NCBI RefSeq assembly: GCF_000270245.1
Contig: NC_015635.1
Location: 124,001 to 188,000 of the forward strand
Length of the DNA stretch: 64,000 bases
Reading direction: 5' to 3'
DNA from: Microlunatus phosphovorus NM-1
Lineage (GTDB): Bacteria; Actinomycetota; Actinomycetes; Propionibacteriales; Propionibacteriaceae
Made by a program: the position numbers and the translations under genes. The notes below the pieces were generated by a model. That model did not search any database. It was not told where the DNA came from and was given only the letters and a program-made list of their open reading frames with translations. Positions 31,901 to 50,405 of this stretch are shown here, piece after piece. Numbering within the stretch: the first letter of the stretch is position 1; every line of letters begins with the position of its first letter.

Positions 31901-32181
31901 TGCACCCCTCCTAGTGGGAGCCAACAATGGACAAAGGTGCCGCCGCAGGCCTCACGTGCGACGGTGATCTGGCCGCCGAGTTCCGCGGCTTGTTCGCGCA
32001 TCGAGGTCAGGCCTATCCCGGCAACGGCTTCCGCGGCGATGCCGATCCCGTCGTCGGTCACCGACAGGTCCAGTCGGTCATCCTGTGCTGCGAGGATCAC
32101 CCGACACGTGGTCGCAGCGGCGTGCCGGCGTACGTTCGTCACGGCCTCGGAGATGATTCGGAAGGCAGCCACCTCGACGGC
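31897..32181 (-). pseudogene. 3' part of NarL-type histidine kinase (HATPase domain), split gene
   Basis: The frame reads AVEVAAFRIISEAVTNVRRH (N box), LDLSVTDDGIGI (G1), GIGLTSMREQAAELGG (G2) and ends with the usual FVHCWLP. It has no start of its own; at 32179-32181 it meets the inserted element. The missing 5' part ends at 50405 with ASLPAPLPAA, so the native sequence was LPAA-VEVAAF. Joined, the kinase would be about 590 aa. Confidence 0.9.
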
Positions 32182-32714
32182 TGCAGCCCCTGTTCGAGAT
32201 CCCGACCGCGGAAAACATCACCATCCACGGCCACAAGGTCGTCAAGGTCCACTACGCCGACGGCAGGACCGAGATCTGGCCGCCGGTCGCCGACACCGAC
32301 GAGGAGCTCCTGGAGCAGCTTCGCCAGATGGGCAGCAACGCCACCCCCGCCCGGACCATCGACGGTCACCAGTACGAGATGACGTTAATGCTCGACGAGC
32401 GGTTCCGGCTCCACGCCTACAGCGACGAGGTGAGCGGCCAACCGCGCATATCGATCCGCCAACACCGGCTGACCAACATCACCCTCGGCGACCTCGTCCA
32501 CGGCGGTCTGATGCCCGAGGAGCTTGCGCGGTTCCTCGACGCCGCCGTCCGGGCCAACGTCAGCATCTGCGTCGCCGGCGTGCAGGCCGTCGGCAAGACC
32601 ACACTGCTCCGAGCACTGGTCGACGCCATCCCAATGTCAGAGGAGTTCGGCACGCTGGAAACCGACCTCGAGCTGTTCTCCCACAAGCTGCCTGGCCGGG
32701 AAAGCTGCGCGTAC
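32181..32714 (+). pseudogene. middle part of CpaF-type secretion ATPase, split gene
   Basis: 178 codons: LQPLFEIPTAENITIHGHKV, a DELLEQL segment, HAYSDEVSGQPRISIRQHRL, GDLVHGGLMPEELARFLDAA, then Walker A ICVAGVQAVGKTTLLRAL and the Asp-box GTLETDLEL. It continues the piece at 49812-50405. After PGRESC it is cut by an IS256 fragment, so the His box and Walker B are missing. Reading on into the IS256 frame creates a false fusion protein. Confidence 0.88.
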
Positions 32715-33330
32715 CTGACCGAGCTGAAGAACCGCGGCGTCGCCGACGTCTGCATCGCCGTGTGTGACGGACTCAAGGGCCTCCCGGAGGCGATCACCAC
32801 GGTGTGGGAGCTGACGGTGGTGCAGCAGTGCATCATCCACCTCCTCCGCAATACGTTCCGGTTCGCGTCGCGGAAGTACTGGGACCAGATCGCCCACGAC
32901 CTGCGGCCGGTCTACACCGCCGCCTCCGAGGCCGAGGCGTGGGCCCGGTTCGAGGAGTTCGAGGAGAAGTGGGGCACCCCGTACCCGGCGATCAGCCGGC
33001 TGTGGCGCACCGCCTGGTCGGAGTTCATACCGTTCCTGGACTACGACGTGGAGATCAGAAAGGTCATCTGCAGCACGAACGCGATCGAGAGCCTGAACGC
33101 CCGCTACCGACGGGCGGTCCGGGCCCGCGGTCACTTCCCCAACGACCAGGCCGCGATGAAGTGTCTCTACCTGGTCACCAGATCGCTGGACCCGACCGGA
33201 CAAGGCAGGGCACGATAGGCGAGAAGGTGGAAACCGGCTTTGAACGCGTTCGCCATCACCTTCGAAGGCCGGATCAACCCGGCCGGGAACTGATCATGGC
33301 ACCAGATCAGATCCACCGTTTATCTGACAC
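32715..33330 (+). mobile_element. IS256-family 3' fragment, copy 1
   Basis: Encodes the last third of an IS256 (Mutator-type) transposase: LTELKNRGVADVCIAVCDGL, the catalytic-region CIIHLLRNTFRFASRKYWDQ and STNAIESLNARYRRAVRARG with the final Glu, then TAG at 33216-33218 where Trp is expected, followed in the same frame by RRWKPALNAFAITFEGRINP. The end ATCTGACAC is the inverted-repeat side. The first two thirds are missing. Copy 2 at 42247-42862 has the same length, breakpoint and TAG. Confidence 0.9.
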
Positions 33331-33367
33331 ACTCCCCAGTCGTTAGCTTCGCGACGCTTGTCTTTGT

Positions 33368-34300
33368 CTACTTGACTGCGCCTTCGGTGAGTCCTCCTCG
33401 CCAGAATCGTTGCAGCACGATCATGGCGATGGCCAGAGGGATTACTGATAGTAGGACGCCGCCGGTGGTGAGTTGGTAGAACTCGGGGAGCCGGTTGGTT
33501 TGGCTGAGCCAGTTGTTCAGGCCGAGAGTGATGGGATATAGGTTGGTGTCGGACAGCATCACCAGGGGCAGAAAGTAGTTATTCCAGATCCCGACGAGTT
33601 GGAACAAGAAGACGGTGACCAGGGCGGGGGTGAGCACGCTGAGCCCGATTGAGTGGAAGATCCGCAGTTCTCCTGCGCCGTCGATTCGGGCTGCTTCTAG
33701 CAGGGCATCGTCGATTGTGGCTTCGGCGTAGATCCTGCATAGGAAGAGGCCGAAGGGTGATACGAGTGAGGGCAGCAGGACCGAAAAGTAGGTGTTGGTG
33801 ATGCCGAGTTGGCTGAATTGCAGGAACAGGGGTAGGGCGATCGCGGTACCGGGTACGAGTACACCGCCGAGAATGGACCCGAAGACGGCTTCGCGTCCGC
33901 GGAACTTGTACTTGGCTAGGGCGTATCCGCCGGCGGCGGCGAAGTAGGTGGCCAGGAGTGCGCCCACACCGGCGTACAGCACCGAGTTGAGGAACCAGCG
34001 GACGAAGATGCCGCCGTCGTAGGTGAGCACTTGTTGCAGATTGCGGAACAGGGCGAAGTCGTCGGCGAACCAGAAGCCGTTTGTTGAAAAGAGATCCTGG
34101 GTTGTCTTGGTGGCGGCCACGACGACCCAGTACACCGGCATCAAGAAGTACACGGCGACGACGATGAGGATGCCGGTGATCAGGATCGTCGAGCCACGGC
34201 TGGCGGTAGAGCCGTGGACGCTGCGGTGTGGACGTCGGGTCTTAGTGGGCGCGCTTTTCGCGGTGTCGGGGGCGCTGGAGATTGTTGCGGTGCTGGTCAT
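33368..34300 (-). CDS. carbohydrate ABC transporter permease (MalG type)
   Basis: 310 aa from the ATG at 34300, which overlaps the upstream permease stop. Six membrane segments, first near residue 40 (ILITGILIVVAVYFLMPVYW), and the EAA loop EAARIDGAGELRIFHSIGL near residue 215 that contacts the ATPase. It forms the sugar channel with the MalF-type subunit. No ATPase gene is in this operon, so a shared MsmK/UgpC-like ATPase elsewhere is needed. Last gene of the operon; 37 bases separate it from the IS256 fragment. Confidence 0.92.
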   Translation of the reverse strand: MTSTATISSAPDTAKSAPTKTRRPHRSVHGSTASRGSTILITGILIVVAVYFLMPVYWVVVAATKTTQDLFSTNGFWFADDFALFRNLQQVLTYDGGIFVRWFLNSVLYAGVGALLATYFAAAGGYALAKYKFRGREAVFGSILGGVLVPGTAIALPLFLQFSQLGITNTYFSVLLPSLVSPFGLFLCRIYAEATIDDALLEAARIDGAGELRIFHSIGLSVLTPALVTVFLFQLVGIWNNYFLPLVMLSDTNLYPITLGLNNWLSQTNRLPEFYQLTTGGVLLSVIPLAIAMIVLQRFWRGGLTEGAVK

Positions 34301-35271
34301 TGTGACTTCCTGTTGGTCAGGCGGAGGAAGGCGAAGGAAAGGATGAACGCAACCAGGGCGATGAGCACGGCTTGGGCGGCGGCGACGTTGTAGTCGTTGT
34401 AGGCGAAGGCGGTCGTGTATGCACTCAGGTTGGGTGTGTATTCGGAGTCGATGGCCGGTGACACGCTTTGCAGCACTTGGGGCTCGGCGAACAGCTGCAG
34501 GGTCCCGATGATGGAGAACACGGTGGTCAACACGAGCGCCGGACGGATCAGCGGGAGCTGGATGGTCCATGCGACTCGCCACGGGCTGGCTCCGTCGACC
34601 TTGGCAGCCTCGTAGATTTCGTTCGGAATGGTTTTCAGCTGCGCCACGATGATCAACATGTTGTAGCCGGTGTAGCTCCAGGTGACGATGTTCGCGATGG
34701 ACCACAGCACGGTGTCGGCGCCGAGAAAGTCGACCTCGACGCCGAACCGGCCGGCGATGTCGATCAGCGGGCTGAGCCCGGGAACGTAGAGGAACGACCA
34801 CAAGATGGTGGCGATCACACCGGGGATGCCGTAAGGCATGAAGTACGACGCCCGGAAGAAGGCGGGCCAGCGGGCCGACGCCCCCTCCAGCAGGAGAGCC
34901 AGGATGGTGCAGAGAAGCATCATCACCGGGACCTGAACGATCCCGAACAGCAGCATCCGGCCGATCGAGGCAGTGAAGTTGTCGTTTCCCAAGGCCTGGG
35001 CGTAGTTCCAGAAGCCGGCGAACTGGGTGGTCACACCCTGTTCGCCGAAGACGCCCTGCCGGGTGACCCGGGTGAAGCTCTGGGCGACGGCGGTCAGGAT
35101 CGGGACGGCGAAAGTGAGGGTGAAGAGCAGTAGGAACGGGGCAAGCAGCGCCCACGGGGCCCAGGCGCGACTGTCCAGCCGGCGCCGACCAGGCCGTCCT
35201 GCGGCACGGTCGGCTCCTGGGCGACCCGTCTTCTCGCCCGCAGCTGTCGAGGTCGTCGTCGAACTGTTCAT
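34297..35271 (-). CDS. sugar ABC transporter permease (MalF type)
   Basis: 324 aa with a 35-residue basic N-terminus, then six membrane segments (WALLAPFLLLFTLTFAVPIL near residue 40). The EAA motif is EAAKVDGASPWRVAWTIQLP near residue 220. Partner of the MalG-type permease; ATGA overlaps on both sides indicate one polycistronic unit with the substrate-binding protein. Confidence 0.92.
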   Translation of the reverse strand: MNSSTTTSTAAGEKTGRPGADRAAGRPGRRRLDSRAWAPWALLAPFLLLFTLTFAVPILTAVAQSFTRVTRQGVFGEQGVTTQFAGFWNYAQALGNDNFTASIGRMLLFGIVQVPVMMLLCTILALLLEGASARWPAFFRASYFMPYGIPGVIATILWSFLYVPGLSPLIDIAGRFGVEVDFLGADTVLWSIANIVTWSYTGYNMLIIVAQLKTIPNEIYEAAKVDGASPWRVAWTIQLPLIRPALVLTTVFSIIGTLQLFAEPQVLQSVSPAIDSEYTPNLSAYTTAFAYNDYNVAAAQAVLIALVAFILSFAFLRLTNRKSQ

Positions 35272-36596
35272 GATGTCGCCTTCCGGATGGTCAGCCCCTT
35301 GTTGCGGAAGGCGTCGATGATGGTGGTTTCGGCGGTGACGATGGCATCCACCAATGTGCCGCCGGATGCCTTCTTGCGGAAGCCGTCACCGATGATGTTG
35401 AACGACTGTTGGGTGATCGGCCACCAGGACCAGTCTGGGTTCTGCTCCTTGGATGCCGGAAGGAAGATCTCCTCGTTGTAGCGCTGCCCGCCGAAGAATG
35501 CCGCGGGCTGCTCGCGCTGCTCACCGATGTAGTCCCGTAGCGGAGACCAGCCGATGCCGCAGTACTTGATCAACGCATCGATCCCTTCCTTACTGGTTTG
35601 CATCCAGATCGCGAACTCGAGGGCCTCCTTCGGATGCTGGCTGTTGGCCAAGACCGCGACCGTGGACCCGCCGATGTAGCTGGACCCGAACCCGTCGGAC
35701 CATCGCGGCATCTTCGCGACCCGCCACTTGCCTTCCCCGCCACTGACTCCCTCGAGTAAGGCGTCGCCCCAGCTGGCGCTGGTCAGCGACGCGATCTGGT
35801 TGTCGGCGGCGGCGGCGAACCACGGCGTGGAGTACTGACCGAATGCGGTGGTGACCAGGTCGTCGTCGATGGCCTTGTCGAAGAACCGGGCCGTGGCGAG
35901 TGTGACGTCGTCGGTCATGTTGATGACCCAGCCATCGCCGTCGACCCTCAGCCAACTCGCGCCGGCCTGGGTTGCGATCGCGGTGAACCAGGATGGGTCG
36001 GCGAGCGGGAAACAGTCGATGTAGACCTTGTCCTTGCGCAGCTCCGCGGCGACCTGGGCCCACTGATCCCAGGTGGCCGGCGCGTCCGCCCCGACCCGCT
36101 CCAGCAGATCCGGGCGGTAGAAGGTGGCCATCGGGCCAGAGTCTTGCGGGATCCCGTACACGCCGTCGACGAAGCTCACCTGGCCCCACAAGGTCTTGTC
36201 GAACCGATCCGCGTAGTCCTGCGCACCGTAGCGGGCCAGGTCGACCAACCCGTTGACCAACAGAAACTCCGGGATGGTTCGGAACTCGATCTGCGCCAGG
36301 TCGGGCCCGGTGCCCGCGGCCAACGCCGAATACATCTTTGGGTAACCGCCGCTGTTGCCGCTGGGAATCCACACCGCCTCAACCTGGATGTTGGGGTTCT
36401 TGGCGTTCCAGATGTCGCAGACCTTCTGAAGATCCTTCAGCCACGCCCAGTAGGTGAGCTTCACCGGCCCGCTGGCCGGCGGGATCACCGGTGCAGCGTT
36501 GACCGAGGTGGAGCCTGGTGTGGAACAACCGGCCAGCAGCGCGGCGCCCGCGCTCATTCCCAACCCGAGAAACCCTCTTCGAGACAACGGGCTCAT
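35268..36596 (-). CDS. sugar ABC transporter substrate-binding lipoprotein
   Basis: 442 aa from the ATG at 36596, chosen because GGAGG lies 5 bases upstream and the signal peptide starts at once: twin-arginine SRRGFLGLGMSAGAALLAGC with a lipobox LAGC. The mature part is an SBP_bac_1 protein (LTYWAWLKDLQKVCDIWNAK, WDQWAQVAAELRKD, FAIWMQTSKEG). It binds an oligosaccharide or glycoside outside the membrane and delivers it to the two permeases. A divergent TetR gene is 135 bases upstream. Confidence 0.92.
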   Translation of the reverse strand: MSPLSRRGFLGLGMSAGAALLAGCSTPGSTSVNAAPVIPPASGPVKLTYWAWLKDLQKVCDIWNAKNPNIQVEAVWIPSGNSGGYPKMYSALAAGTGPDLAQIEFRTIPEFLLVNGLVDLARYGAQDYADRFDKTLWGQVSFVDGVYGIPQDSGPMATFYRPDLLERVGADAPATWDQWAQVAAELRKDKVYIDCFPLADPSWFTAIATQAGASWLRVDGDGWVINMTDDVTLATARFFDKAIDDDLVTTAFGQYSTPWFAAAADNQIASLTSASWGDALLEGVSGGEGKWRVAKMPRWSDGFGSSYIGGSTVAVLANSQHPKEALEFAIWMQTSKEGIDALIKYCGIGWSPLRDYIGEQREQPAAFFGGQRYNEEIFLPASKEQNPDWSWWPITQQSFNIIGDGFRKKASGGTLVDAIVTAETTIIDAFRNKGLTIRKATS

Positions 36597-36731
36597 CAGC
36601 ACCTCCGACGACGATGTGGATGCGGGTGCGCCCAACGTGTCCCCAGCCGGGATGATGTTGGCGCTGCGGTAATATAACAGAAAACCGGGCAGATGACCTA
36701 GTTTCAGACTCGGCTATTCTCGGGAGCCATT

Positions 36732-37352
36732 GTGACGACGGATGCGCGCCGGAGAGGGCCCTACGCCAAGACGGCTGAGCGGCGTCACCAGATCCTTGAT
36801 GCTGCCCTTCAGGTCTTCGCCGCGCACGGCTACCGCGCCGGGTCGATGCGTGAGGTGGCCCGGACGGCCGACATGAGCCTGTCCAACCTGATGCATCACT
36901 TCAGGACGAAGGAAGATCTCCTGCTCGCCCTTCTCAGGCGGCGTGACGACGACAGCCCCGGGCAGCGAACCGGCACCCACGACCTCGTCGCCGACATCCT
37001 GTCCCAAGCACGCTGGAACCAGACCAAGCCCGACTTGATTGCGCTATACGCAGTGCTGTCGGCGGAATCCGTCACAGATGGCCACCCTGGCCGCGACTAC
37101 TTTATCGAACGGTTTGTCACCGTCCGGAGAGGCTTCGAGGAAGAGTTCGGAAAGCTCCGCGACGCCGGACGGCTTCGGCCAGGAGTGGATCCGCACATGG
37201 TCGCCGGCTGCATCACCGCACTGTGGGACGGCATCCAGCTGCAGTGGCTCCTGCAGCCCGATCAGATCAACGTCGTCGCCTACCTAGAGGCCTTTCTCGA
37301 CCTCGTAACCCTTCCCCCTGACACAGCTTTCATCGCCGACCCCGGGTGTTGA
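36732..37352 (+). CDS. TetR-family regulator of the sugar transporter
   Basis: 206 aa from a GTG at 36732 with GGGAG 7 bases before. N-terminal HTH: RRHQILDAALQVFAAHGYRA, then MREVARTADMSLSNLMHHFR, a SLSNLMHHF recognition helix typical of BetI/AcrR-like TetR proteins. The ligand domain follows. Divergent from the transporter operon, so it probably controls it. Its last codons run into GAACTGTC, the inverted repeat of an IS3 remnant, so the natural C-terminus may be altered. Confidence 0.85.
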   Translation: MTTDARRRGPYAKTAERRHQILDAALQVFAAHGYRAGSMREVARTADMSLSNLMHHFRTKEDLLLALLRRRDDDSPGQRTGTHDLVADILSQARWNQTKPDLIALYAVLSAESVTDGHPGRDYFIERFVTVRRGFEEEFGKLRDAGRLRPGVDPHMVAGCITALWDGIQLQWLLQPDQINVVAYLEAFLDLVTLPPDTAFIADPGC

Positions 37353-37616: not shown

Positions 37617-37713
37617 GATACGCATCAGCCGTGATGCGCAAGCCGGTCCGGTTGCGGGACGCCTGGCGGTGACAACTTCACCGGCAAACCCGTTGACGAC
37701 TGGCCCCTTCGGG

Positions 37714-38940
37714 TCAGAGGGGCAGCGGTGGCTGTGGTCTGGATGCGTTCGTTCGGGGCATGCTTCCGCTGAGCGCGAGTGCGACGCCTGACGCGATGGC
37801 TGCAGGGAGGAGGTGGTGGCCGAGTGTGTTGCCGACGAGGCCGGATACAGCGCTGCCGAATCCAAAGCCTAGGAGTCCGCAGGTGCCCAGCCAGGAGAAC
37901 GACGTGCTTCGCTGTGCGGGTCGTGCGACCAAGACGATGCTCAACTGAAGCAACGCGTCGCGGGGGCCAGTGAGCGTCCCGAGGACTAGGTACAGCGCAG
38001 CGAGAGTGACGATGTTGGCCGCACCACCGCGGCTTTGGCCGAGGGCAGAGAGGCCGAGTACGAGGACGAGGACGATGAAGGCTGCGGTGATGGCCATGGC
38101 GAAGCCGACGAGTCTGGACGTTAACGCGTCTTGGTGAAGGTGGTGGCGTCCAGCGATGGTGCCGGCGGTCACCGCCCCGATGGCGGCGGCTGCGAGCAGG
38201 ACGCCGGCGATGCTTGGCTCCTCGGCTTCTGCGGCGAGCAGACCGGCGGTGGCGACCAGACTGCCGGCGCCGAGCGAAGCGCAGAACGTGATGCCGTAGG
38301 TGAGGATGACCCGGCGGGACTGCGGTTCGCGGGCTGGCCGCCGGTTGGCTCGGCGGGCGCTATCCAGGACGGCTGCTGGGAGGCCGAGGCTGCCGACGGT
38401 GATGGGCAGGAAGACGGTCAGCAGGGCAAGCGGGGCGGGGAGAATGCTCAGGGTGAGGGCGGCGAGGAGAGGCCCGGTGATGGTGGCGGCCTCGTTGATG
38501 ACGGTGTCCAACGCGTAGGCCGTTCGCAGCTGCGCTGGCGGGATCAGCAGCGGCCAGCCGGCACGGGTGACGGCTCCGACGGGGGGAAGGCACATGCCGA
38601 GGATCGTGACGCCTGACAGCAGTACTGGTGTCGGGACGGCCAGAGTCAACGCGGCGCTGGTGCCTAGCAGAGCGATCAGGGCGAGTATCAGCCAGATCCG
38701 CAGGATCGCTCGGCCGCCGTGACGGTCGACGAGCCGGCCAGTGATGGGCATCATGGCGGCGAAGCCGGCGGTGTACAGCCCGACCGTCACGGCCGCGAGG
38801 CCGTGGTCGTGGTAGCGCTCCTGCACGCCGACCAGCAGCGGCAGCGTGAGCAGCGGCTGGGTCATCCGGCTCAGCGAGGCCGCGACGATTTGTCGTGGGA
38901 CCCCGGAATGCCTGCACAGATCGGTATAGCCGCTGCTCAC
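37714..38940 (-). CDS. MFS transporter of the TetR-methyltransferase operon
   Basis: 408 aa from a GTG at 38940; the longer open frame upstream runs through the methyltransferase gene out of frame. About 12 hydrophobic segments; the loop 2-3 motif is GRLVDRHGGRAILRIW, and SRMTQPLLTLPLLVG opens helix 1. It resembles small-molecule exporters of the drug/H+ class. It follows the methyltransferase after 55 bases and shares the TetR gene, so resistance or export is plausible; the substrate is unknown. Confidence 0.85.
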   Translation of the reverse strand: MSSGYTDLCRHSGVPRQIVAASLSRMTQPLLTLPLLVGVQERYHDHGLAAVTVGLYTAGFAAMMPITGRLVDRHGGRAILRIWLILALIALLGTSAALTLAVPTPVLLSGVTILGMCLPPVGAVTRAGWPLLIPPAQLRTAYALDTVINEAATITGPLLAALTLSILPAPLALLTVFLPITVGSLGLPAAVLDSARRANRRPAREPQSRRVILTYGITFCASLGAGSLVATAGLLAAEAEEPSIAGVLLAAAAIGAVTAGTIAGRHHLHQDALTSRLVGFAMAITAAFIVLVLVLGLSALGQSRGGAANIVTLAALYLVLGTLTGPRDALLQLSIVLVARPAQRSTSFSWLGTCGLLGFGFGSAVSGLVGNTLGHHLLPAAIASGVALALSGSMPRTNASRPQPPLPL

Positions 38941-38995
38941 GTCTGACCTGGGCGCAGACGACGCAGCACCATCGGTGGCGCAGCCGGCAGGTCCA

Positions 38996-39847
38996 TCAAC
39001 GCCACAGGTGCAGGGTGGTTGGTGGCATCTGTTCGCTGAACAACCCGTCCGGGCCGGCCCGGTGGAGAAGTTGATGCAGATCATGGTCAAAAGCCGAGAG
39101 CTGGTCGCCGAACAAGTGCGGTGCAGCGCTGGACAGCGAGTAGACCGACGCCGCCACCTCGTCGGCGGTCCGCTCCAAGAGCCGACCTTCGACCCGGATC
39201 TGTTGGAGCTCGGTGAAGCCGACAGCACTGTAGATGGCCGCTTCGCCGCCAACTGTGCCGGCCGACAGTGTCGTCTGCCCGGCCCGACGCCGCTCACCCA
39301 GGTAGTACGCCACGAGCGTTCGGATAGCCGTCCGAGGCGGCTGAGGGTGCGGGAGCGTGGTGTCGGTGGAGACGCCTTGGTGGGTGGTGGCGCTGACATG
39401 GACGAGCGTCCCGCCGGGAGTGAGCAAGCGCCGGGCGGCCGCGGCAACTCGGGGCCGGTCCATCCAATGGAAGGACTGCGCGAAGGTAATCATGTCGACC
39501 GGGGGCAGGTCCGCCGGCAAGGCCTCGGCTCGGAGGTGCCGCCAAACAACGTTGTCGATCTTCGCCTGGTCAGCCAGGCGCTCGGCCTCGATGAGCATGT
39601 CGGCATCGGCGTCGACCCCGATGGCCTCGGCGAACAGCGGAGCCAACACCAAGGTCAGCGACCCCGGCCCGCAGCCGACATCCAGCAAGCGCCCGTGACC
39701 GGCCAGCCGCAGCGCCTGCTGGAGCCGGTCGGCGATCGCGCTCGGGTAGGCGGCACGTCCTCGGGCGTAATAGGCGGCGCTGCCGGCATACAGCGTCGGA
39801 TCCCACCGCCAAGCAGTCCTTGAGCCTGTAGCGGGTTCCTCGGTCAC
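38996..39847 (-). CDS. class I SAM-dependent methyltransferase
   Basis: 283 aa. Motif I is LLDVGCGPGSLTLVL near residue 54, GVDADADML is the acidic motif II, ITFAQSFHWMD the motif IV region, GGTLVHVSA follows. The ALRLAGHGRLLD and YARGRAAYPSAIADRLQQAL openings match the Methyltransf_11/25 proteins with an N-terminal Y..GRP-like segment. Its ATG overlaps the TetR stop by 4 bases. Acting on a drug or small metabolite is a guess from the TetR-MFS context. Confidence 0.86.
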   Translation of the reverse strand: MTEEPATGSRTAWRWDPTLYAGSAAYYARGRAAYPSAIADRLQQALRLAGHGRLLDVGCGPGSLTLVLAPLFAEAIGVDADADMLIEAERLADQAKIDNVVWRHLRAEALPADLPPVDMITFAQSFHWMDRPRVAAAARRLLTPGGTLVHVSATTHQGVSTDTTLPHPQPPRTAIRTLVAYYLGERRRAGQTTLSAGTVGGEAAIYSAVGFTELQQIRVEGRLLERTADEVAASVYSLSSAAPHLFGDQLSAFDHDLHQLLHRAGPDGLFSEQMPPTTLHLWR

Positions 39848-40440
39848 CGGGTGACGCCGATCTGGTCGGCGACCGCGGCGACGTACCGGGCGAGCGTGGC
39901 TCGGTCCGGTGCCGAGAACGGCTCATCGGTGACCAGCACGTAGTGCAAGGCGGCAGTGAGGAGAAAACCAAAGGCCTCGACATCCACGTCCTCACGGACG
40001 GTCCCGTCACACTGTCGGTCGCGCAGGAACCCCTGCATCACCGTCGCCCAGGACCGGGTGATGCCCGCCTCGACCGCTTCCCGCAGGATTTTCTCTCCGC
40101 CCGGAAGCTGGCTCAGGTGCCTGACCAGCGCGGGGGCGTCGGAGGCGGCCTGCAAGTCGGCGAACTCCATCAACCGGTCGGCCAGCTGTCCGTCCGGACG
40201 CACCGCCCAGTCCTCGATGCCGGCGGCGAGCTCCCGCAGCGAGACCCAGGTCAGCTCGCGCAGCAACTCATCGCGCGAGGTGAAGGCCTTGTAGGACATG
40301 CCCACAGCCACCCCCGCTTCGCCGGCCAGGGCCCGCATGGTCAGACCGTCCACGCCGTCTCGAGCAATGACGGTTCGGGCGTGCCCGAGCAGCGCCGCGC
40401 GCAGCGCGTCGATATCCGTGGCGGGGCGGGGCGGTGTCAT
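39844..40440 (-). CDS. TetR-family regulator
   Basis: 198 aa. HTH: LRAALLGHARTVIARDGVDG, then MRALAGEAGVAVGMSYKAFT, SYKAF being the recognition helix end. The rest is an alpha-helical ligand domain (LADRLMEFADLQAASD, LVTDEPFSAPDRATLARYVA). First gene of a TetR-methyltransferase-MFS operon. Two adjacent TGAAC-N4-GTTCA palindromes at 40477-40504 lie just upstream and are likely its binding sites, also serving the divergent membrane-protein gene. Confidence 0.88.
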   Translation of the reverse strand: MTPPRPATDIDALRAALLGHARTVIARDGVDGLTMRALAGEAGVAVGMSYKAFTSRDELLRELTWVSLRELAAGIEDWAVRPDGQLADRLMEFADLQAASDAPALVRHLSQLPGGEKILREAVEAGITRSWATVMQGFLRDRQCDGTVREDVDVEAFGFLLTAALHYVLVTDEPFSAPDRATLARYVAAVADQIGVTR

Positions 40441-40476
40441 CGAATCCTTCCGGAGAGCTTGCGAGTGACCCTATCA

Positions 40477-41541: not shown

Positions 41542-41647
41542 CCGCTGACGCGCCGACCGCACCGGTGAAGGACGACGAACGGCCTTACCAGCCTTGGCCC
41601 TTCGGCGCCGAACCAGCCAACCGCAGCAACCTAGAAAAGGATCCGCG

Positions 41648-42283: not shown

Positions 42284-42862
42284 TCAGTTCCCGGCCGGGT
42301 TGATCCGGCCTTCGAAGGTGATGGCGAACGCGTTCAAAGCCGGTTTCCACCTTCTCGCCTATCGTGCCCTGCCTTGTCCGGTCGGGTCCAGCGATCTGGT
42401 GACCAGGTAGAGACACTTCATCGCGGCCTGGTCGTTGGGGAAGTGACCGCGGGCCCGGACCGCCCGTCGGTAGCGGGCGTTCAGGCTCTCGATCGCGTTC
42501 GTGCTGCAGATGACCTTTCTGATCTCCACGTCGTAGTCCAGGAACGGTATGAACTCCGACCAGGCGGTGCGCCACAGCCGGCTGATCGCCGGGTACGGGG
42601 TGCCCCACTTCTCCTCGAACTCCTCGAACCGGGCCCACGCCTCGGCCTCGGAGGCGGCGGTGTAGACCGGCCGCAGGTCGTGGGCGATCTGGTCCCAGTA
42701 CTTCCGCGACGCGAACCGGAACGTATTGCGGAGGAGGTGGATGATGCACTGCTGCACCACCGTCAGCTCCCACACCGTGGTGATCGCCTCCGGGAGGCCC
42801 TTGAGTCCGTCACACACGGCGATGCAGACGTCGGCGACGCCGCGGTTCTTCAGCTCGGTCAG
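42247..42862 (-). mobile_element. IS256-family 3' fragment, copy 2
   Basis: Inverted copy of 32715-33330: 616 bp, same encoded transposase end, same first base (CTGACCGAGCTG), same in-frame TAG. Only two base differences were noticed, near the inverted-repeat end. On its upstream side it joins an IS3 transposase at FHDGPYK, and on its other side it runs into the RibD-C-like gene. Confidence 0.9.
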
Positions 42863-43029
42863 CACTTGTAGGGACCGTCGTGGAACACGGTGGTGCGGAT
42901 GCATTCAGCCTTGTAGAGGCCGTTGATGGATTCCATTAAGGCGTTGTCGTAGGCATCGCCGACCGACCCGATCGAGGGGCGGATCTCTTCCAGGGCGAGA
43001 TGTTCGGTCAGCCGCAGCGACGTGTATTG
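42863..43029 (-). pseudogene. 3' piece of IS3 OrfB transposase
   Basis: Encodes YTSLRLTEHLALEEIRPSIG, then SVGDAYDNALMESINGLYKA with the catalytic Glu of the DDE triad, and ECIRTTVFHDGPYK. It continues exactly from the 5' piece at 44518 once the IS30 element and one TTG duplicate are removed. Confidence 0.9.
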
Positions 43030-44517
43030 GGCGAGTTCAAGGGGTCGATGCAACACCGGCTCGTTGAAGCGAGCGTAGTTGATCCTGGAAGACCTCAGCG
43101 GGCGTCTTCCATCCGAGGATCTTCCGGGGCCGGTTGTTGAGCGTGTGAGCGACGGCTTCGAGGTCGTCGGCTGACCACCGGGACAGGTCGGTGCCCTTGG
43201 GAAAGTACTGCCGCAGCAGGCCGTTGGTGTTCTCGTTGGTCGGTCGTTGCCAGGGAGAGTGCGGATCAGCGAAGAACACCTGCGTCCCGGTGTCCAACGC
43301 AAAGCGTGCGTGATCTGAGAGCTCTTTGCCGCGATCCCAGGTCAGTGTCTTGCGTAGCTGGTCAGGCAGCTTGGTCATCGACGCCGTGAGTGCGGCGTTC
43401 ATCGCGACCGCTCCGTAGCCGCCGAGCGACAGACCGTTCTTCACGTACGGCTGCTCACCCCAGCCCTCCATGCGCGGCAGGTGGACCAGCAGAGTTGCCC
43501 GACTGCTGCGTTCGACCAGCGTGCCGATCGCGGACCTGTCCGTCCCGATGATCAGATCACCCTCCCAATGGCCGGGAACCGCGCGGTCGTCGGCCTCGGC
43601 AGGGCGCTCGCTGAGGACGACGTCGGCGGTGACGTGCCCCTGGGGCTTGTTGCGTGATCTGGCCCTCGGCTGGCGCAATGCTCGCCCCGTGCGTAGACAC
43701 CTCACCAGTTCACGCTTGAGAGCACCACGCCCCTCGATGAACAACGACTGGTAGATCGCCTCGTGGCTGATGCGCATGGACTCATCATTGGGGAAGTCGA
43801 GCCTCAACCGATGCGCAATCTGCTCTGGGCTCCAGGCCGTCGACCACCGTCGGTCCTGGCGATGGGGCTTGTTCAACCCCTTCCACGCGGGTGTCCTGGG
43901 GCCAGCGACGGCCGTGCCGTCAGGCCGACGGACGTTCCTGGCCAGCCGGTCCTGCACGTACTCACGTAATCGCGCGTTGCCGACCAGCTTCGCCGCCTTC
44001 GGACGCTTCGCTGCTTGCTGCGCCTTCCACTGCGCCACCACGGCACGGTAGACCGGCTTGCCGCCCCTGGTCGCAGCGTTGCGGCGCAGTTCACGAGAGA
44101 TCGTTCCCGGATCGCGGCCGATCGTGCGGGCAATCTCGCGGACACCCTTGTCCTGGGCCTTCAGCAGCGCGATCTCCTCCCGCTCGGCGAACGACAGGTA
44201 CCGACCAGTGGGCTCGTCCAGGCTCAGCGGCGTCATCCCGCCAGCGTGTCGAAACCACCGACTCCCGACCGGCACCGACACGCCGACCCCCTCGGCGGCC
44301 TGGGCCGTGGTGATGCCAGTCCCGATCAGACGCCAGAACTCCCGCTGCACAACTCGCGACGGCTCGGGCCGGCCCGGCGAGCGCATCGGCGGCCGCATCG
44401 CCCTATCCGCAGCCCACTGCCGACGCGCCGTCGCCGGCGCCAGGAGCGGCTGCTTCCTCGGTCGTCCCATCCAACACCTCCATCATCAAGGTGTTGCGAC
44501 GACCGGTCGAATCCGCC
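43030..44517 (-). mobile_element. IS30-family element nested in IS3, TTG target duplication
   Basis: The ends are inverted repeats (GGCG..TTC.A..GGTCG..GCAACACC from both sides, about 20 of 28 matching). TTG at 43027-43029 and at 44518-44520 flank it as a 3-bp duplication; removing one copy restores the IS3 reading frame GSQ-YTS. The element contains one intact transposase gene and looks recent. Confidence 0.9.
43037..44470 (-). CDS. IS30-family transposase
   Basis: 477 aa, full length. N-terminal HTH (REFWRLIGTGITTAQAAEGV), the IS30 region RYLSFAEREEIALLKAQDKG with REIARTIGRDPGTISRELRR, WSPEQIAHRLRLDFPNDESM and the DDE core: HWEGDLIIGTDRSAIGTLVE (Asp), LTWDRGKELSDHARF (Asp), SPWQRPTNENTNGLLRQYFP (Glu). 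No stop inside. Confidence 0.95.
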   Translation of the reverse strand: MGRPRKQPLLAPATARRQWAADRAMRPPMRSPGRPEPSRVVQREFWRLIGTGITTAQAAEGVGVSVPVGSRWFRHAGGMTPLSLDEPTGRYLSFAEREEIALLKAQDKGVREIARTIGRDPGTISRELRRNAATRGGKPVYRAVVAQWKAQQAAKRPKAAKLVGNARLREYVQDRLARNVRRPDGTAVAGPRTPAWKGLNKPHRQDRRWSTAWSPEQIAHRLRLDFPNDESMRISHEAIYQSLFIEGRGALKRELVRCLRTGRALRQPRARSRNKPQGHVTADVVLSERPAEADDRAVPGHWEGDLIIGTDRSAIGTLVERSSRATLLVHLPRMEGWGEQPYVKNGLSLGGYGAVAMNAALTASMTKLPDQLRKTLTWDRGKELSDHARFALDTGTQVFFADPHSPWQRPTNENTNGLLRQYFPKGTDLSRWSADDLEAVAHTLNNRPRKILGWKTPAEVFQDQLRSLQRAGVASTP

Positions 44518-45189
44518 TTGCGACCCGGCATCGGAGTGGTGGATGAGCTGGCCCGGCTCGGTGGGATGCCCTTCGCGGCCCCGCTGCCACAGCGCCATCC
44601 GCAGCGGGATCATCACCAGGTCGGTGTGCTTGGTCGTCGCGGCGTGCCAGGCCACGATCCGTTGGGCGTAGACGTCGACGATGAACGCCACGTAGACGAA
44701 CCCGGCCCACGTCCGGCAGTAGGTGAAGTCGGTGACCCAGGTCCGGTTCGGGGCGGCGGCGGTGAAGTCTCGGTCCAGCAGATCGCCAGCACGGGTCCCG
44801 TCCTTGGCCGGGATCGTGGTCCGGATGACCTTGTCGCGGCGCACCCCGGACAGCCCGAGGATGCGCATCGCCCGGTCCACGGCTCCGGCGGAGGCATCCG
44901 GCATCGCGGTGCGGCGGAGGTAGGCGGTCATCTTCCGCCGTCCGTAGAGCCCCTCCGGCGCGAGCTTGCGCACCCGTGCGCCGTCGTTGTCGACCTTGGT
45001 GGTCCAGGCAATGTCAGGGACCGCGTCGACGACCTGGGCATCGGTCACGGTCCGAGCGGCGATCACCCGTCCGGCTTTCTTCCAATGGCGGTAGGTCCGC
45101 GCGGCGATCTGGCAGCCCTGCTCACGCAGCACCCGACAGATCGACTCGACCGCGTGGCCCTGGCTTCTCATGGTGTCGATGAAGCCCAT
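44518..45189 (-). pseudogene. 5' piece of IS3 OrfB transposase
   Basis: From ATG at 45189: MGFIDTMRSQGHAVESICRV, then LYGRRKMTAYLRR, the rve core with Asp in TWVTDFTYCRTWAGFVYVAF, ending GQLIHHSDAGSQ at the IS30 boundary. The final Glu lies in the piece at 42863-43029. Confidence 0.9.
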
Positions 45190-45191
45190 GA

Positions 45192-45503
45192 TCAGCGGTT
45201 GCGGGGGTCGAGTTCCCCGGCGAAGAGAACCGTTGCCGATTTCAGGATCGCATTGTCTTCCTCCAGCCGGCGGACCTTCGCCTTCAACGCCTTGATCTCG
45301 GCCAGCTCCTCAGTGCTCGCGCCGGCCCGCTGACCGTCGTCGACCTCAGCCTGGATCACCCATCGACGGACGGACTCCTTACCGACACCGAGCTGCTTGG
45401 CCACCACCGCCGCAGCAGCGGTGAGCGAGGAATACTCGCCCCGATGGTCCTGGACCAGTCGGACCGCTCGGGCCTTCAGCTCATCATCGATCTTCTTGGG
45501 CAT
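45192..45503 (-). CDS. IS3-family transposase OrfA (disrupted element)
   Basis: 103 aa from the ATG at 45503 (another ATG lies three codons upstream, right on AGGAGG). MPKKIDDELKARAVRLVQDH, AAAVVAKQLGVGKESVRRWV is the HTH, and ELAEIKALKAKVRRLEEDNA is the coiled leucine-zipper part. Its orfB is interrupted, so it has no partner in this copy. Confidence 0.88.
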   Translation of the reverse strand: MPKKIDDELKARAVRLVQDHRGEYSSLTAAAAVVAKQLGVGKESVRRWVIQAEVDDGQRAGASTEELAEIKALKAKVRRLEEDNAILKSATVLFAGELDPRNR

Positions 45504-45557
45504 GGTGCTCATCCTCCTGGACTCAAACAGGAGCGGCATCAAACCCGGGGCGCTTCA

Positions 45558-45973: not shown

Positions 45974-46003
45974 CCGGTCGCGGCGCGCCAGCGCCGCGAC
46001 CGG
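45974..46003 (-). terminator. hairpin after the par operon
   Basis: CCGGTCGCGGCGC and its exact complement surround a 4-base loop (GCCA), 13 bases after the stop of the ParB-like gene. A strong GC stem at the end of the parA-parB unit is best read as its terminator. Confidence 0.65.
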
Positions 46004-46015
46004 CTGCCCCGTCGG

Positions 46016-46576
46016 TCAGTTGGGCGCAATCCTCAACTGCTCGCTGATACTCGCCGTCAGCTCGTCCACCGTGGCGCCGGTGCACGTTTCCAGCGCCCCG
46101 GACTCGGCCACGGCGCGCAACGCAGCGCGGATCACCGTGTTCGTGTTCAGACGCTCGCCCGTGACCGCGGCCGGTCGACGCCTCGCCTTCAAGCGGACCT
46201 CGGTGGTACGGATGGCCGTCATCACCTCAGGTTCGACTCGTGTCTGTACCCGCTCGAGCTGGAGGTAGGGGGGCAGATCATCGATCGCAGCAGGGTCGGC
46301 CGGCGTCGCCTGAGGTGGCGCCCCACGCTTCGCCGCCGCGCGCTTCGTCGTCGCCGACCCCCGGGACTTCGAACCCCCGGCAGACCCCGCAGGCGCCGCC
46401 GTCTCCGCAGGGGCAGCCGTCTCCGCAGGCGACACAGTCTCCGCCTCGGCGTCCGCCTCGGCACGGGCAGCCGAGGACGTCGAGGCCTCGCTCCCCCACC
46501 CGGTCTGGTCCGGCGGCCGCGCATCCTTCTTGGCTCGCACGAGCTCGGCCAGCTTCCTGGTCTGCGTGGACGTCAT
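46016..46576 (-). CDS. ParB-like partner/centromere-binding protein candidate
   Basis: 186 aa from the ATG at 46576, overlapping the parA stop by 4 bases. The first 110 residues are low-complexity, rich in Ala, Pro, Glu (AEAETVSPAETAAPAETAAP). The C-terminal 75 residues (LERVQTRVEPEVMTAIRTTE, RLNTNTVIRAALRAVAESG) look like a ribbon-helix-helix DNA-binding domain. Small ParA partners of plasmid type Ib have such RHH proteins; this role is inferred from position. Confidence 0.65.
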   Translation of the reverse strand: MTSTQTRKLAELVRAKKDARPPDQTGWGSEASTSSAARAEADAEAETVSPAETAAPAETAAPAGSAGGSKSRGSATTKRAAAKRGAPPQATPADPAAIDDLPPYLQLERVQTRVEPEVMTAIRTTEVRLKARRRPAAVTGERLNTNTVIRAALRAVAESGALETCTGATVDELTASISEQLRIAPN

Positions 46577-47217
46577 TTTGCGGTGCTCCTGTTCAGGTAG
46601 GCCTGCATTTCGAGCGCTAGCTGCCGTATGTCGTTGGCGGCATCGCCAGCACGCCGGGCGCGACTCCGTGTGATCAAGGTTCGGTTGGCGATGGCGTCCT
46701 GATGAGCCGTCAGATCTCTGACCCAGGTTCGTGCGACCGTGATCCCCGCCTCGTCCAGCGCGTCTCGGATCTCGCGAGCTCGCGCGGCCGCCCTCGTGTC
46801 CACCCTGTTGAGAACGACGGCGTAGGGCGTCCCCGAGTCCACCAGCAGGTCGTTCACTGTCTCGATCGTCGGCGTGATGGACCACGGCGCCGGCTCCATC
46901 GGCACCAGGGCGAAGTCGGCGACCTCGACGACGGCGGTCAGGATCGGCCGGAACGCCAGGTGTCCAGGGGTGTCGATCACCATCCAGTCGTACTGGTCCA
47001 CGTTGGGGAGCTCACGAATCTCAGAGGGGTCTGAGGCCGCGTAGACCGGAATCGGTTGGCCTTCGACCTCGTCGAGGTACTCGGTGATGGACCGCTGCGG
47101 ATCGGTGTCGGCGACCGCCACGGTGGCTCCGGACTCGTGGAGGGCCGCCGCCATCCCGGCCGCGATCGTGCTCTTGCCGGGTCCGCCCTTCTGGTTCGCG
47201 ATCGCCAGTATCCTCAT
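46573..47217 (-). CDS. parA: ParA-family partition ATPase
   Basis: 214 aa, the short type-Ib ParA without an N-terminal HTH. Deviant Walker A NQKGGPGKSTIAAGMA with the signature Lys, DTDPQRSITEYL (Walker A'), WMVIDTPGHLA (Walker B), VPMEPAPWSI. It drives segregation of a plasmid or integrated element by ATP-dependent DNA binding. It is followed by its probable partner, and AT-rich repeats with AAGTT cores lie just upstream (47228 on). Confidence 0.93.
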   Translation of the reverse strand: MRILAIANQKGGPGKSTIAAGMAAALHESGATVAVADTDPQRSITEYLDEVEGQPIPVYAASDPSEIRELPNVDQYDWMVIDTPGHLAFRPILTAVVEVADFALVPMEPAPWSITPTIETVNDLLVDSGTPYAVVLNRVDTRAAARAREIRDALDEAGITVARTWVRDLTAHQDAIANRTLITRSRARRAGDAANDIRQLALEMQAYLNRSTAK

Positions 47218-47227
47218 ACCGACCCAC

Positions 47228-47640: not shown

Positions 47641-47680
47641 GCGGGTGCAGGGCGTGCCGCTTGCACCAGGGGCAGGCCGA

Positions 47681-47971: not shown

Positions 47972-47980
47972 CCAAGACTA

Positions 47981-47992
47981 GAACGTACGTTC
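47981..47992. promoter_or_regulatory. GAACGTACGTTC palindrome, possible LexA-type box
   Basis: A perfect 12-bp palindrome ten bases upstream of the 96-aa gene. It fits GAAC-N4-GTTC of the actinobacterial SOS box and is followed by G; the first flanking base is A rather than C. The following 200 bases hold another AAGTT-rich patch (48005-48065) and no gene. Confidence 0.4.
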
Positions 47993-48004
47993 GTTTATCG
48001 GATA

Positions 48005-48065
48005 GATCGAGTAAGTTAGCAAGTTCGCGACTTAGGCAGTTGGTCAGTTGCTCACTGGCGAACTT
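48005..48065. repeat. third AAGTT-rich repeat patch
   Basis: GAGTAAGTTAGCAAGTTCGC, GACTTAGGCAGTTGGTCAGT and CTGGCGAACTTTGGC continue the motif found at 47228-47640, on the other side of the 96-aa gene. Probably part of the same partition or replication control region. Confidence 0.5.
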
Positions 48066-48271
48066 TGGCTTGCTTCGAGCAACAGCAGTCGTCACGCGTA
48101 GCTAGTGGATGCGGGCAGCCACCACACGGCGGCTCGCGCCCAGCTGCTGGCGGGGAGGGGAGTGACACACGGGATTGGTGTTGTGTCGGCCTACGTGACG
48201 ACCCCGAATCCGGCCTACATTGTGGCTCCGCTTCCCACCCCGCCCAAACGAATCGCTCCCCAGGAGAACGC

Positions 48272-48952
48272 GTGAGCAACACTCTCGCCACCACCACTCT
48301 CGCGAACGGTCAGCAGCCCCCCGGCGCAGCTTCTGTCCAAAGGGTCGCACCGAAGCTGCGGCGGCGCCGCACTCATCTCCTCGGCATCGCAGCCCTGCTG
48401 ATCGTGGCAGGGCTCGCAGCGGTCTTCATCGTCCAGCAGCTCCAGACCCAGAACCGAGTGATCCAGGTGCGGGCCGACATTCCCCGCGGCGCCGTGATCA
48501 AAGCGAGCGATCTGGCTGAGGTGACCGTGGGCGCGATCCCGGGGGTTTCCACGGTCTCCGCGGAGCAGATGCCCGGGATGGTGGGGAAGCGCGCCGCCAT
48601 CGACCTGGCCAAGGGCTCGCTGTTGCCGGCGGGCGGTGTCGGATCCGTCGCGATCCCGGCCGCGGGTCAGACCCTGGTCGGGATCCGTCTGGACCAGGGC
48701 CGGATGGTGATGGGGGATGTCACTCCCGGGAGCAGGCTGCGTCTGATCGTCACCGCCCCCCAGGGCGGCGATCCGTCGTTCAAGGACGGCAACTCAGCCC
48801 GCCAGATCGGCGCAGTCCTGGTGGATTCAAGCCCGGCTCTGGACGGAGCCGCGACGTTGGTCAACGTCCAGGTCGGCCAACGGGACGCAGCGCTCGTCGC
48901 GCAGCTCGCGGCGACCGGTCGCATCGCAATCGTGCAGGACCCCCAGCGCTGA
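48272..48952 (+). CDS. SAF-domain (CpaB/RcpC-like) membrane protein
   Basis: 226 aa from a GTG at 48272, supported by AGGAG at 48262-48266. One membrane segment near residue 35 (LLGIAALLIVAGLAAVFIVQ) is followed by an SAF domain (VRADIPRGAVIKASDLAEVT, PGMVGKRAAIDLAKGSLLP). CpaB-type proteins belong to Tad pilus or related secretion machines at the cell envelope. First of three overlapping genes with a CpaE-like and a CpaF-like protein; such trios are frequent on actinobacterial plasmids. Confidence 0.85.
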   Translation: MSNTLATTTLANGQQPPGAASVQRVAPKLRRRRTHLLGIAALLIVAGLAAVFIVQQLQTQNRVIQVRADIPRGAVIKASDLAEVTVGAIPGVSTVSAEQMPGMVGKRAAIDLAKGSLLPAGGVGSVAIPAAGQTLVGIRLDQGRMVMGDVTPGSRLRLIVTAPQGGDPSFKDGNSARQIGAVLVDSSPALDGAATLVNVQVGQRDAALVAQLAATGRIAIVQDPQR

Positions 48953-49815
48953 TGACCATCACCGTCTTGACCTCCGCCTCCGGCTCACCCGGGGTGACCA
49001 CTACCGCGGTCGGCTTCACCTTGCACTGGCCCGGGTCCTGCCTACTCGTCGACACCGACTACCAGAAGTCGGTCCTGACCGGCTATCTCGAGGGCAGCGT
49101 GGTGACGCCGAACGGGCTGATCCACGTCATCAACGCCGCCCGAACGACGTCCACCCCGAGCAAGGCACTGTGGCAGCAGGCTGTGCCGCTCCCCGATGAC
49201 GACCCCGAGGGCCATCGCCGGATGCTCCTGCCCGGCTTGGACTCGCCGAACACCGCGAAGGCGTTGGCCGGGTCGTGGAAGCCGGTCGCGGAGGCTCTCA
49301 GGGCCCTGGAGTCGACCGGCACCGATGTGATCGTCGATCTGGGCAGGCTCGCGCCCGGGGGAGTCCCGCCCGCGCTGCTGGCCGTCGCCACCCACGTGTT
49401 GTTGATGACCAAGCCGACAGTGCGATCCGTGGGCGCCTGCCACTGGGCCGCCCGGCGGCTTACCGACCAGGCCGCTGAGTACGCCACCTCCGCCAGAGTC
49501 GGGCTCCTGCTCGTCCGGCGCCCGTTGGTGACCAAGACGTCTTTCGTCACCCGCGCGGATCCGACGCCGCGGGGGTACGACAACGTCGAGATCGAAGCCT
49601 TCCTGCCCCTGAAGGTGCGCGGCACCATCGCCCACGATCTCGTCAATGCCGCCCTCCTCTCCGACGGTGGGCCACGCGGCCCAAAGTTCGCGCGATCGAG
49701 CTACGCCGCCTCACTGAGAGGGGTCGCCGAGAACCTGGCGCAGACAAGCCCCGCTTCCCGAAGCCAGCCACCACCTCCGACCACCGATGACCGAGCCCTT
49801 CAGGAGAACCAGTGA
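48952..49815 (+). CDS. CpaE/MinD-like P-loop ATPase
   Basis: 287 aa; its ATG shares a base with the upstream stop. TVLTSASGSPGVTTTAVGFT is a deviant Walker A lacking the usual Lys after Gly (GSPGVTTT), and VIVDLGRLAPGGVPPALL the Walker B region. The C-terminal tail is Pro-rich. CpaE-like proteins localise the Tad machinery and here probably assist CpaF. ATGA overlap with the cpaF start at 49812. Confidence 0.8.
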   Translation: MTITVLTSASGSPGVTTTAVGFTLHWPGSCLLVDTDYQKSVLTGYLEGSVVTPNGLIHVINAARTTSTPSKALWQQAVPLPDDDPEGHRRMLLPGLDSPNTAKALAGSWKPVAEALRALESTGTDVIVDLGRLAPGGVPPALLAVATHVLLMTKPTVRSVGACHWAARRLTDQAAEYATSARVGLLLVRRPLVTKTSFVTRADPTPRGYDNVEIEAFLPLKVRGTIAHDLVNAALLSDGGPRGPKFARSSYAASLRGVAENLAQTSPASRSQPPPPTTDDRALQENQ

Positions 49816-50405
49816 CCAACGACGATCCTGATCTCACCTCCGGTGACCAGCCCAGCGAGCCCCCGGCGGCACGCAGCGACAAGGAACAGGTCCTCGACCA
49901 CCTCGACAAGCTCCTCGGGCGATCCCCGAGCGGCCGGCGGTGGGGCCGGCCGCAGAGCACGACCCTGAGCAGCGCCGCTGCGCGCGACGACGAGCCGGCG
50001 ACCGACGCGGGTGAGCCGAGCCTGGCGTCGATCCCGATGTTCGCCGCCACCGCGTCCTGGACCTCACCCGACGCCGACGCCGACGACGACGTGCCGACCA
50101 TCGACAGCGCCGGTGGCCCCGACCGCGGCTGGATCGCCGAAGACTCCCAGATCGACTGGCAGCTCGTGCGGAAGCTGAAGCTGGCCAGCGTCGACCGTCT
50201 CGATGAGCAGATCAAGCAGCACCGGGCCCGCCACGACGGCCACGAGCCCAGCGTCGCCGACCGCCGCGAGATGGGGAAGCCGATCATCGCCCACATCGTC
50301 ACCGAACATGCCGAGGCCAACGCAGGCCAGGGATACCTGTGGACCCCGGCCCTCGAGGACCGCTACTTCAAGGCGGTCTTCGACTCCCAGTTCGGCTACG
50401 GCCGG
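49812..50405 (+). pseudogene. N-terminal part of CpaF-type ATPase, split gene
   Basis: 198 codons. The first 100 are acidic and disordered; then IDWQLVRKLKLASVDRLDEQ, MGKPIIAHIVTEHAEANAGQ, ALEDRYFKAVFDSQFGYGR, the N-terminal domain of CpaF/VirB11-type ATPases. At 50405 the frame leaves CpaF and enters the antisense of a kinase gene, so residues after FGYGR are false. The expected continuation (LQPLFE) is at 32181. Confidence 0.88.

What the first reader, a model, noticed from the sequence alone, without database searches (positions are those of the whole stretch)
32181..50405. An 18.2-kb circle inserted by crossing a cpaF gene with a histidine-kinase gene
Two genes are each split across the same two points. 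Host kinase: 5' part ends LPAPLPAA at 50405, 3' part starts VEVAAF at 32178. Element cpaF: N-part ends QFGYGR at 50405, middle starts LQPLFE at 32181. Excision rejoins the kinase; circularisation rejoins cpaF, both in frame. Only GGC is shared at the crossover, with one extra G on the right. ParA, a ParB-like protein and repeats mark it as plasmid-like. It disconnects a two-component system sitting next to an injection-system cargo gene. No integrase is visible, so the insertion route is unexplained.
Basis: partly seen in the sequence, partly recalled or inferred. Interest (0 to 1): 0.9.

Follow-up and report, generated by a model that had tools for sequence, protein, structure and literature searches.

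The report
Decayed plasmid lodged in kinase gene
A worn-down plasmid that once carried pilus genes appears to have been pasted into the chromosome inside a sensor-kinase gene, cutting one gene of each, most likely by the cell's break-repair machinery rather than by a dedicated integration enzyme.

Summary
At 32178-32181 and 50403-50407 a histidine-kinase gene and a CpaF/TadA ATPase gene are both cut, and the pieces fit back only if the stretch between was once a circle or a circularly permuted copy. Homologues read through both joins: CpaF in 8 of 9 matched loci (the ninth is remote), the kinase in 15 of 15. Corrections: a rejoined cpaF would still be broken, since an IS256 remnant replaces its end from 32715; an exact exchange cannot leave both genes in frame, one nucleotide (modulo three) being left over; no injection-system gene was recognised nearby. 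The segment carries ParA and a cluster of partition-like sites. Its SAF-CpaE-CpaF run resembles Cutibacterium plasmids, but its par genes do not match those beside that run there. Most likely it is a Tad-type plasmid captured at a chromosomal break by end joining: no recombinase among the stretches scanned, at most about 4 bp of overlap, Ku and LigD in the genome. A lost or distant site-specific recombinase is not excluded. The kind of event is known; the attraction is that two genes record both ends to the base.

The parts
31283..31927 (-). LuxR/NarL-type response regulator next to the split kinase; true start probably inside this ORF
   Evidence: Response_reg and GerE
31897..32178 (-). 3' part of the host histidine-kinase gene (HATPase_c)
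   Evidence: contiguous with the 5' part in homologues
32178..32181 (.). left junction; CGGC fits both kinase and cpaF (up to 4 bp of overlap)
   Evidence: sequence; overlap inferred by reading both genes in frame
32178..32714 (+). middle part of the element's CpaF/TadA-type ATPase (T2SSE)
   Evidence: homologues
32715..33330 (+). IS256-family 3' fragment, 616 bp, fused in frame to cpaF
   Evidence: Transposase_mut; repeat
33368..36635 (-). sugar-type ABC importer: two permeases and a solute-binding protein
   Evidence: 33368-34279, 34297-35271, 35268-36635; substrate not tested
36732..37352 (+). TetR-type regulator
37714..40440 (-). MFS transporter, methyltransferase and TetR-type regulator
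41594..42283 (+). RibD_C domain protein
42247..42862 (-). inverted, 100% identical copy of the IS256 fragment, cut at the same 5' base
42863..45542 (-). transposase remnants of IS3 and IS30 kind
   Evidence: HTH_38, rve, HTH_21 and HTH_Tnp_1; IS30/IS3 labels from plasmid annotation; IS3 tail at 42863-43030 read by eye from memory
46016..46600 (-). small protein overlapping the end of parA; ParB-like by position only
   Evidence: no family (longer ORF); no plasmid match
46573..47217 (-). ParA-type partition ATPase
   Evidence: NF041546 at 125 bits, below its cut-off of 180; matches in 3243 plasmid records
47269..48041 (.). cluster of ACTTAGNAAGTT-like sites, a presumed partition or operator region
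   Evidence: 10 of 12 window matches lie here (some are the same palindrome read on both strands); pattern chosen after seeing the sequence
48065..48952 (+). SAF-domain (CpaB-like) protein; true start inside this ORF
   Evidence: 43% identical to the plasmid SAF protein over 193 positions
48952..49815 (+). CpaE-like protein
   Evidence: no Pfam family
49812..50405 (+). N part of the element's CpaF
50403..50407 (.). right junction; base 50405 fits both genes; one base surplus in total, modulo three
50405..51901 (-). 5' part of the host histidine-kinase gene (HisKA_3), closed by a stop at 50396-50398

Best explanation
A circular, ParA-bearing plasmid with Tad-pilus genes (or a permuted linear copy of it) was broken inside its cpaF gene and joined into a double-strand break in a histidine-kinase gene of the chromosome by non-homologous end joining, leaving a few bases of chance overlap and one surplus nucleotide. 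Before or after capture, insertion sequences took away the end of cpaF and, presumably, the other tad, replication and transfer genes, and a sugar-type importer and other cargo came in. Shown: the two split genes, their complementarity, the lack of homology at the joins, the SAF-CpaE-CpaF and ParA content, Ku and LigD in the genome. Inferred: that the donor was an autonomous plasmid, that Ku and LigD did the joining, the order of events, and loss of kinase function.
For: Both genes are contiguous in homologues (8 of 9 CpaF loci, 15 of 15 kinase loci; motif unbroken in 20 of 22 CpaF loci, 8 of them the same as, the other 2 ending at a contig edge). In 29000-53500 repeat finder gave no direct repeat of 25 bp or more and two inverted pairs, neither at the junctions. 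The longest word shared by the two 40-base junction stretches is 6 nt, 9 and 7 bases away from the crossover. Net +1 nt, modulo three. No resolvase or phage-integrase domain in 19 element stretches, only transposase domains. Ku (277-aa frame) and LigD_N (820-aa frame) in the genome. One copy of the element; the next-best match to the kinase 5' part in the genome is 33%. ParA matches in 3243 plasmid records and no ParA match beside CpaF in six other loci read (L029, L054-L058). SAF, CpaE-like and CpaF in the same order on Cutibacterium plasmids, and CpaF groups with those in a tree, apart from the genome's own paralogue (91/84).
Against: No reads were available; the junctions rest on the assembly. 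The ParA beside the tad genes on the Cutibacterium plasmid shares only its nucleotide-binding motif with this ParA, the next gene shows no similarity, and this ParA matches other ParA genes there, so the shared block is SAF-CpaE-CpaF only. Those plasmids are described as linear (PMC5696575, passages), which would not enter as a permuted circle by themselves. No replication gene was recognised. The tree joins long branches and the tool warns it may be false. CpaE-like and CpaF matches are widespread in relatives (220 of 293 and 195 of 198 genomes at E up to 0.001, some remote), so a circle cut from another chromosome is conceivable. G+C hardly differs between element blocks (65.3-67.3%) and flanks (67.4-68.1%). 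The +1 nt could be a later indel or an error. Ku and LigD being present does not show that they acted. Tyrosine integrases elsewhere in the genome were not searched for.
Confidence: 0.57

Rival explanations
1. Site-specific integration: a recombinase, since lost with the rest of the plasmid or acting in trans, crossed a site inside cpaF with a site inside the kinase gene.
For: Both breaks lie in conserved protein motifs. The rebuilt cpaF join has 8 of 10 inverted-repeat matches near the crossover, reached by 1.9% of background windows. The genome has 4 resolvase-family matches, one in a 564-aa frame. Two draft contigs end 1 and 3 codons before the same cpaF residue.
Against: An exact exchange cannot leave both genes in frame, if both were in frame before. 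The symmetry is weaker at longer arms (16.6, 5.5 and 38.2% of windows at 15, 20 and 25) and the kinase side is not above background (45-89% of windows). No recombinase in the element stretches scanned.
Confidence: 0.21
2. Another kind of illegitimate recombination, such as topoisomerase-mediated strand exchange or template switching, joined the two without Ku and LigD.
For: Short overlap at the joins fits these as well; the two IS256 arms cut at the same base suggest odd copying events in this element's history.
Against: Nothing specific to them is seen; Ku and LigD are present.
Confidence: 0.14
3. Assembly artefact: a separate plasmid and the chromosome were falsely joined.
For: No reads are available here, and the pieces would rebuild well.
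Against: One contig, 100% complete by the tool's figure; no repeat found at the joins that would mislead an assembler; no second copy of the element.
Confidence: 0.05
4. The kinase halves are naturally separate genes and the cpaF pieces are coincidental.
For: None found.
Against: 15 of 15 kinase loci are single open frames and 8 of 9 CpaF loci are contiguous at exactly these points.
Confidence: 0.01

Closest known systems
Tad/Flp-pilus plasmids of Cutibacterium acnes and C. modestum (NC_021086, NZ_CP017041)
   Same: SAF, CpaE-like and CpaF in the same order; SAF 43% identical, CpaE-like 34.3-36.4%, CpaF middle 56.5-58.2%
   Different: The ParA beside the run is not a close match and its neighbour shows no similarity; par genes lie on the opposite strand here; TadB, TadC, pilin and transfer genes not seen here; those plasmids are free and described as linear
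The genome's own second CpaF locus (about 5,477,000)
   Same: CpaE-like and CpaF adjacent; CpaF 56.8% identical over the middle part
   Different: CpaF whole; no ParA match in the 19 kb read; falls with the other genomes' copies in the tree, away from the element
Foreign DNA captured by bacterial NHEJ (Ku/LigD); recalled, with passages in PMC5124664 that raise foreign-DNA integration as a possibility
   Same: No homology, short overlap, small nucleotide change, host has Ku and LigD
   Different: The event is historical; nothing here ties it to Ku or LigD by experiment
Integrative elements with serine or tyrosine integrases (recalled)
   Same: A circle opened at one point and inserted into a gene
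   Different: No integrase found in the stretches scanned; no shared core that gives an exact exchange with both genes in frame

Membership tests
Integrated circular plasmid | Element gene split across the two ends so that the ends rejoin | tested here: met
Integrated circular plasmid | Partition genes and sites | tested here: inconclusive
   ParA, below the NCBIfam cut-off; site cluster with a pattern chosen afterwards; partner gene by position only
Integrated circular plasmid | Replication initiator | tested here: inconclusive
   none among 19 Pfam-scanned stretches; not all 111 ORFs were scanned
Tad/Flp pilus plasmid | SAF-CpaE-CpaF gene run | tested here: met
   CpaF incomplete
Tad/Flp pilus plasmid | TadB, TadC and pilin genes | tested here: not met
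   none among the 19 stretches scanned; cpaF itself stops at 32714
Site-specific integrative element | Integrase gene in the element | tested here: not met
   19 stretches; small ORFs not all scanned
Site-specific integrative element | Common core with conservative exchange | tested here: not met
   assuming both genes were in frame before insertion
NHEJ capture product | Host Ku and LigD | tested here: met
NHEJ capture product | Junctions without homology, small nucleotide gain or loss | tested here: met
NHEJ capture product | Dependence on ku or ligD | not testable with these tools
   needs a bench test

The most novel reading that the evidence does not exclude
The FG-x-G|R-L-Q-P motif of plasmid-type cpaF is a real recombination site, used by an unknown recombinase to insert Tad elements into conserved kinase genes. 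It would explain why two draft contigs from different genera also end at this residue and why both breaks lie in conserved motifs.
Probability: 0.07. Interest if true: 0.7.

Novelty: new member of a known kind. Interest (0 to 1): 0.36.

Why it matters
Plasmids that integrate without an integrase are hard to delimit. Here two protein-coding genes give both ends to the base, in a genome that has Ku and LigD, so the product of such a capture can be read almost exactly. If the reading is right it also shows a Tad-type plasmid reaching this actinobacterium and surviving as a remnant, and it makes the part played by end joining in taking up whole plasmids testable.

Tried and rejected
Empty site in relatives: no close one. 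In 57 genomes, own included, the best match to the kinase 5' part outside this locus is 34% (E 2e-35); among named genomes one relative, Cellulomonas aerilata at 43%, passed (1 of 89 candidate stretches). Element relatives: the cpaF N part finds nothing in plasmids or named genomes (none of 290 candidate stretches); the whole element matches 50 plasmid records, none over 80% of its length, and the 30 listed rows are IS pieces, one sugar-transporter piece and unannotated stretches. The partner of ParA finds no plasmid match. ParA in viral contigs gives five relatives at 28-32%, so a phage origin was not followed. A single inversion was rejected: both kinase halves keep one orientation. A transposon end was rejected: no IS at either outer junction, and the longest word shared by the flanks, GGCAGC, lies 9 and 7 bases from the junctions, not beside them.

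Same break elsewhere: from the listed rows (a capped list) I took the five with the shortest open frames. G154 and G344 continue well upstream through the motif, G331 continues 33 residues to its contig edge, and G364 and G021 end at contig edges 3 and 1 codons upstream. A search of 78 genomes, nearly all fragmented drafts, with the own intact paralogue (join at residue 150) lists these two as starting at 147 and 149; other truncated-looking rows start at 127, 186, 216 and 234, and one ends at 383; I did not check whether those lie at contig edges. The choice was made after the fact. L071's end shares no 15-mer with any other locus held; L073's shares 17-mers with several, which fits an assembly effect. 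I treat it as an oddity.

In one search my SAF query was in a wrong frame and its rows were ignored; two weak rows for the small partner protein (L055, L057), with the composition filters off, I take as chance. After re-checking the calls I added, which weaken the likeness of the par genes to the Cutibacterium plasmids; I lowered the best explanation from 0.60 to 0.57 for that.

Papers: PMC5696575, PMC5124664, PMC7719229 and PMC4122934 were seen as passages, others only as listings. I looked for this organism's genome in print only through and did not search for this element by name.
Full report
What is there. The window is bases 124001-188000 of a single 5,683,123-base contig. No call names the host; the size matches, from memory, Microlunatus phosphovorus NM-1. 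At the left junction the kinase, read on the reverse strand, meets cpaF (32178-32181); at the right junction cpaF meets the rest of the kinase (50403-50407). Pfam sees HisKA_3 in the right kinase piece and HATPase_c in the left one, and T2SSE in the cpaF middle.

Is it more than chance. With the pieces searched separately, 8 of the 9 loci that match the CpaF middle (10 given) have the N part directly before it, at FGxG-R. All 15 kinase loci given have the 3' part in one long open frame; in 10 of 15 the 5' piece aligns up to the join, in 3 it overlaps slightly and in 2 the local alignment stops early. The kinase loci were chosen by their match to the 5' part, so only the position of the 3' part is an independent test. 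A set of 22 CpaF loci, 8 of them the same, shows the motif unbroken in 20; the other two reach a contig edge. The split points are real and complementary.

The crossover. Read in frame, CGGC at 32178-32181 fits both genes, and so does base 50405. An exact exchange cannot leave both genes in frame: all 30 listed in-frame cpaF joins give an out-of-frame kinase, which is one arithmetic fact about the total length, one nucleotide surplus modulo three. The longest word shared by the two 40-base junction stretches is six bases and lies away from the crossover. In 29000-53500 no direct repeat of 25 bases or more was found and the two inverted pairs are the IS256 arms and a 35-nt pair outside the element. 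The dyad around the rebuilt cpaF join is modest (1.9, 16.6, 5.5 and 38.2% of background windows at arms 10, 15, 20 and 25); the kinase side is not above background.

What was inserted. From the right end inward: CpaF N part, CpaE-like and SAF genes, a cluster of ACTTAGNAAGTT-like sites, then ParA and a small partner on the other strand. The pattern, chosen after seeing the sequence and with up to two mismatches, gives 12 matches in the window, 10 at 47269-48041 and 2 at 45704-45716, some of them one palindrome on both strands; shuffles give a mean of 1.47 and none of 100 reaches 12. From the left end: the CpaF middle runs at 32715 into a 616-base IS256-family fragment whose perfect inverted copy lies at 42247-42862, with importer, TetR, MFS, methyltransferase and RibD_C genes between them. 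Remnants of other transposases follow. TadB, TadC, pilin, replication and transfer genes were not recognised in the 19 stretches scanned. It is a remnant; closing the circle would not give a whole CpaF. G+C of its blocks is 65.3-67.3% against 67.4-68.1% in the flanks, too close to tell.

Where it came from. Matches to CpaF and CpaE-like proteins are widespread in relatives (195 of 198 family genomes and 220 of 293 order genomes at E up to 0.001, some of them remote), and this genome has its own whole CpaF at 56.8% identity. In a tree of the element and 21 loci its CpaF groups with two Cutibacterium plasmid copies (91/84), apart from the clade with the genome's own paralogue; the tool warns of long branches. 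Those plasmids carry SAF (43% identical), CpaE-like and CpaF in the same order. A ParA gene lies just before that run there, but it shares only the nucleotide-binding motif with ours, and its neighbour shows no similarity to our small protein; our ParA matches other ParA genes of those plasmids and many plasmid records generally (3243). They are described as linear (PMC5696575, passages) although the record table says circular. Around six other CpaF loci (L029, L054-L058) no ParA match was found in the stretches read. A plasmid origin is likely, not proven.

How it probably got there. No resolvase or phage-integrase domain appears in the 19 stretches scanned; small ORFs were not all scanned and tyrosine integrases elsewhere in the genome were not searched for. 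There is no homology at the joins, exchange was not exact, and the genome has Ku and LigD_N; the species name that I recall appears in a paper on bacterial NHEJ as an actinobacterial outlier (PMC7719229, one passage). End joining of a broken plasmid into a chromosomal break is the simplest account. A site-specific recombinase that was lost, or that acts from elsewhere (four resolvase-family matches in the genome), is the main rival.

Consequences. The kinase 5' part ends in a stop two codons after the junction, and the 3' part is cut off from its start, so the kinase is presumably inactive; the response regulator is whole. Both halves are free of stops, which hints at a fairly recent event. 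The species that I recall is listed with a phage-tail-derived element at MLP_03590-03730 (PMC4122934, passage); whether that lies near this window was not tested.

Noticed in passing
32715-33330 and 42247-42862: Two perfectly identical inverted IS256 fragments are cut at exactly the same internal 5' base but have different neighbours (cpaF and an IS3-like remnant); two independent truncations do not explain this.
   Followed up: partly
L073 (G364:C182) start and L071 (G021:C50) end: Two draft contigs from different genera end 3 and 1 codons before the cpaF residue at which the element is cut; possibly an assembly effect.
   Followed up: partly
21014-21086: Fluoride riboswitch (Rfam RF01734); the gene behind it was not identified.
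   Followed up: no
63638-64000: Tandem array with a period of about 52 or 103 bases running to the window end.
   Followed up: no
G000:C1:112072-113565, left of the window: A 78% relative of the element's IS30-type transposase stretch about 10 kb outside the window.
   Followed up: no
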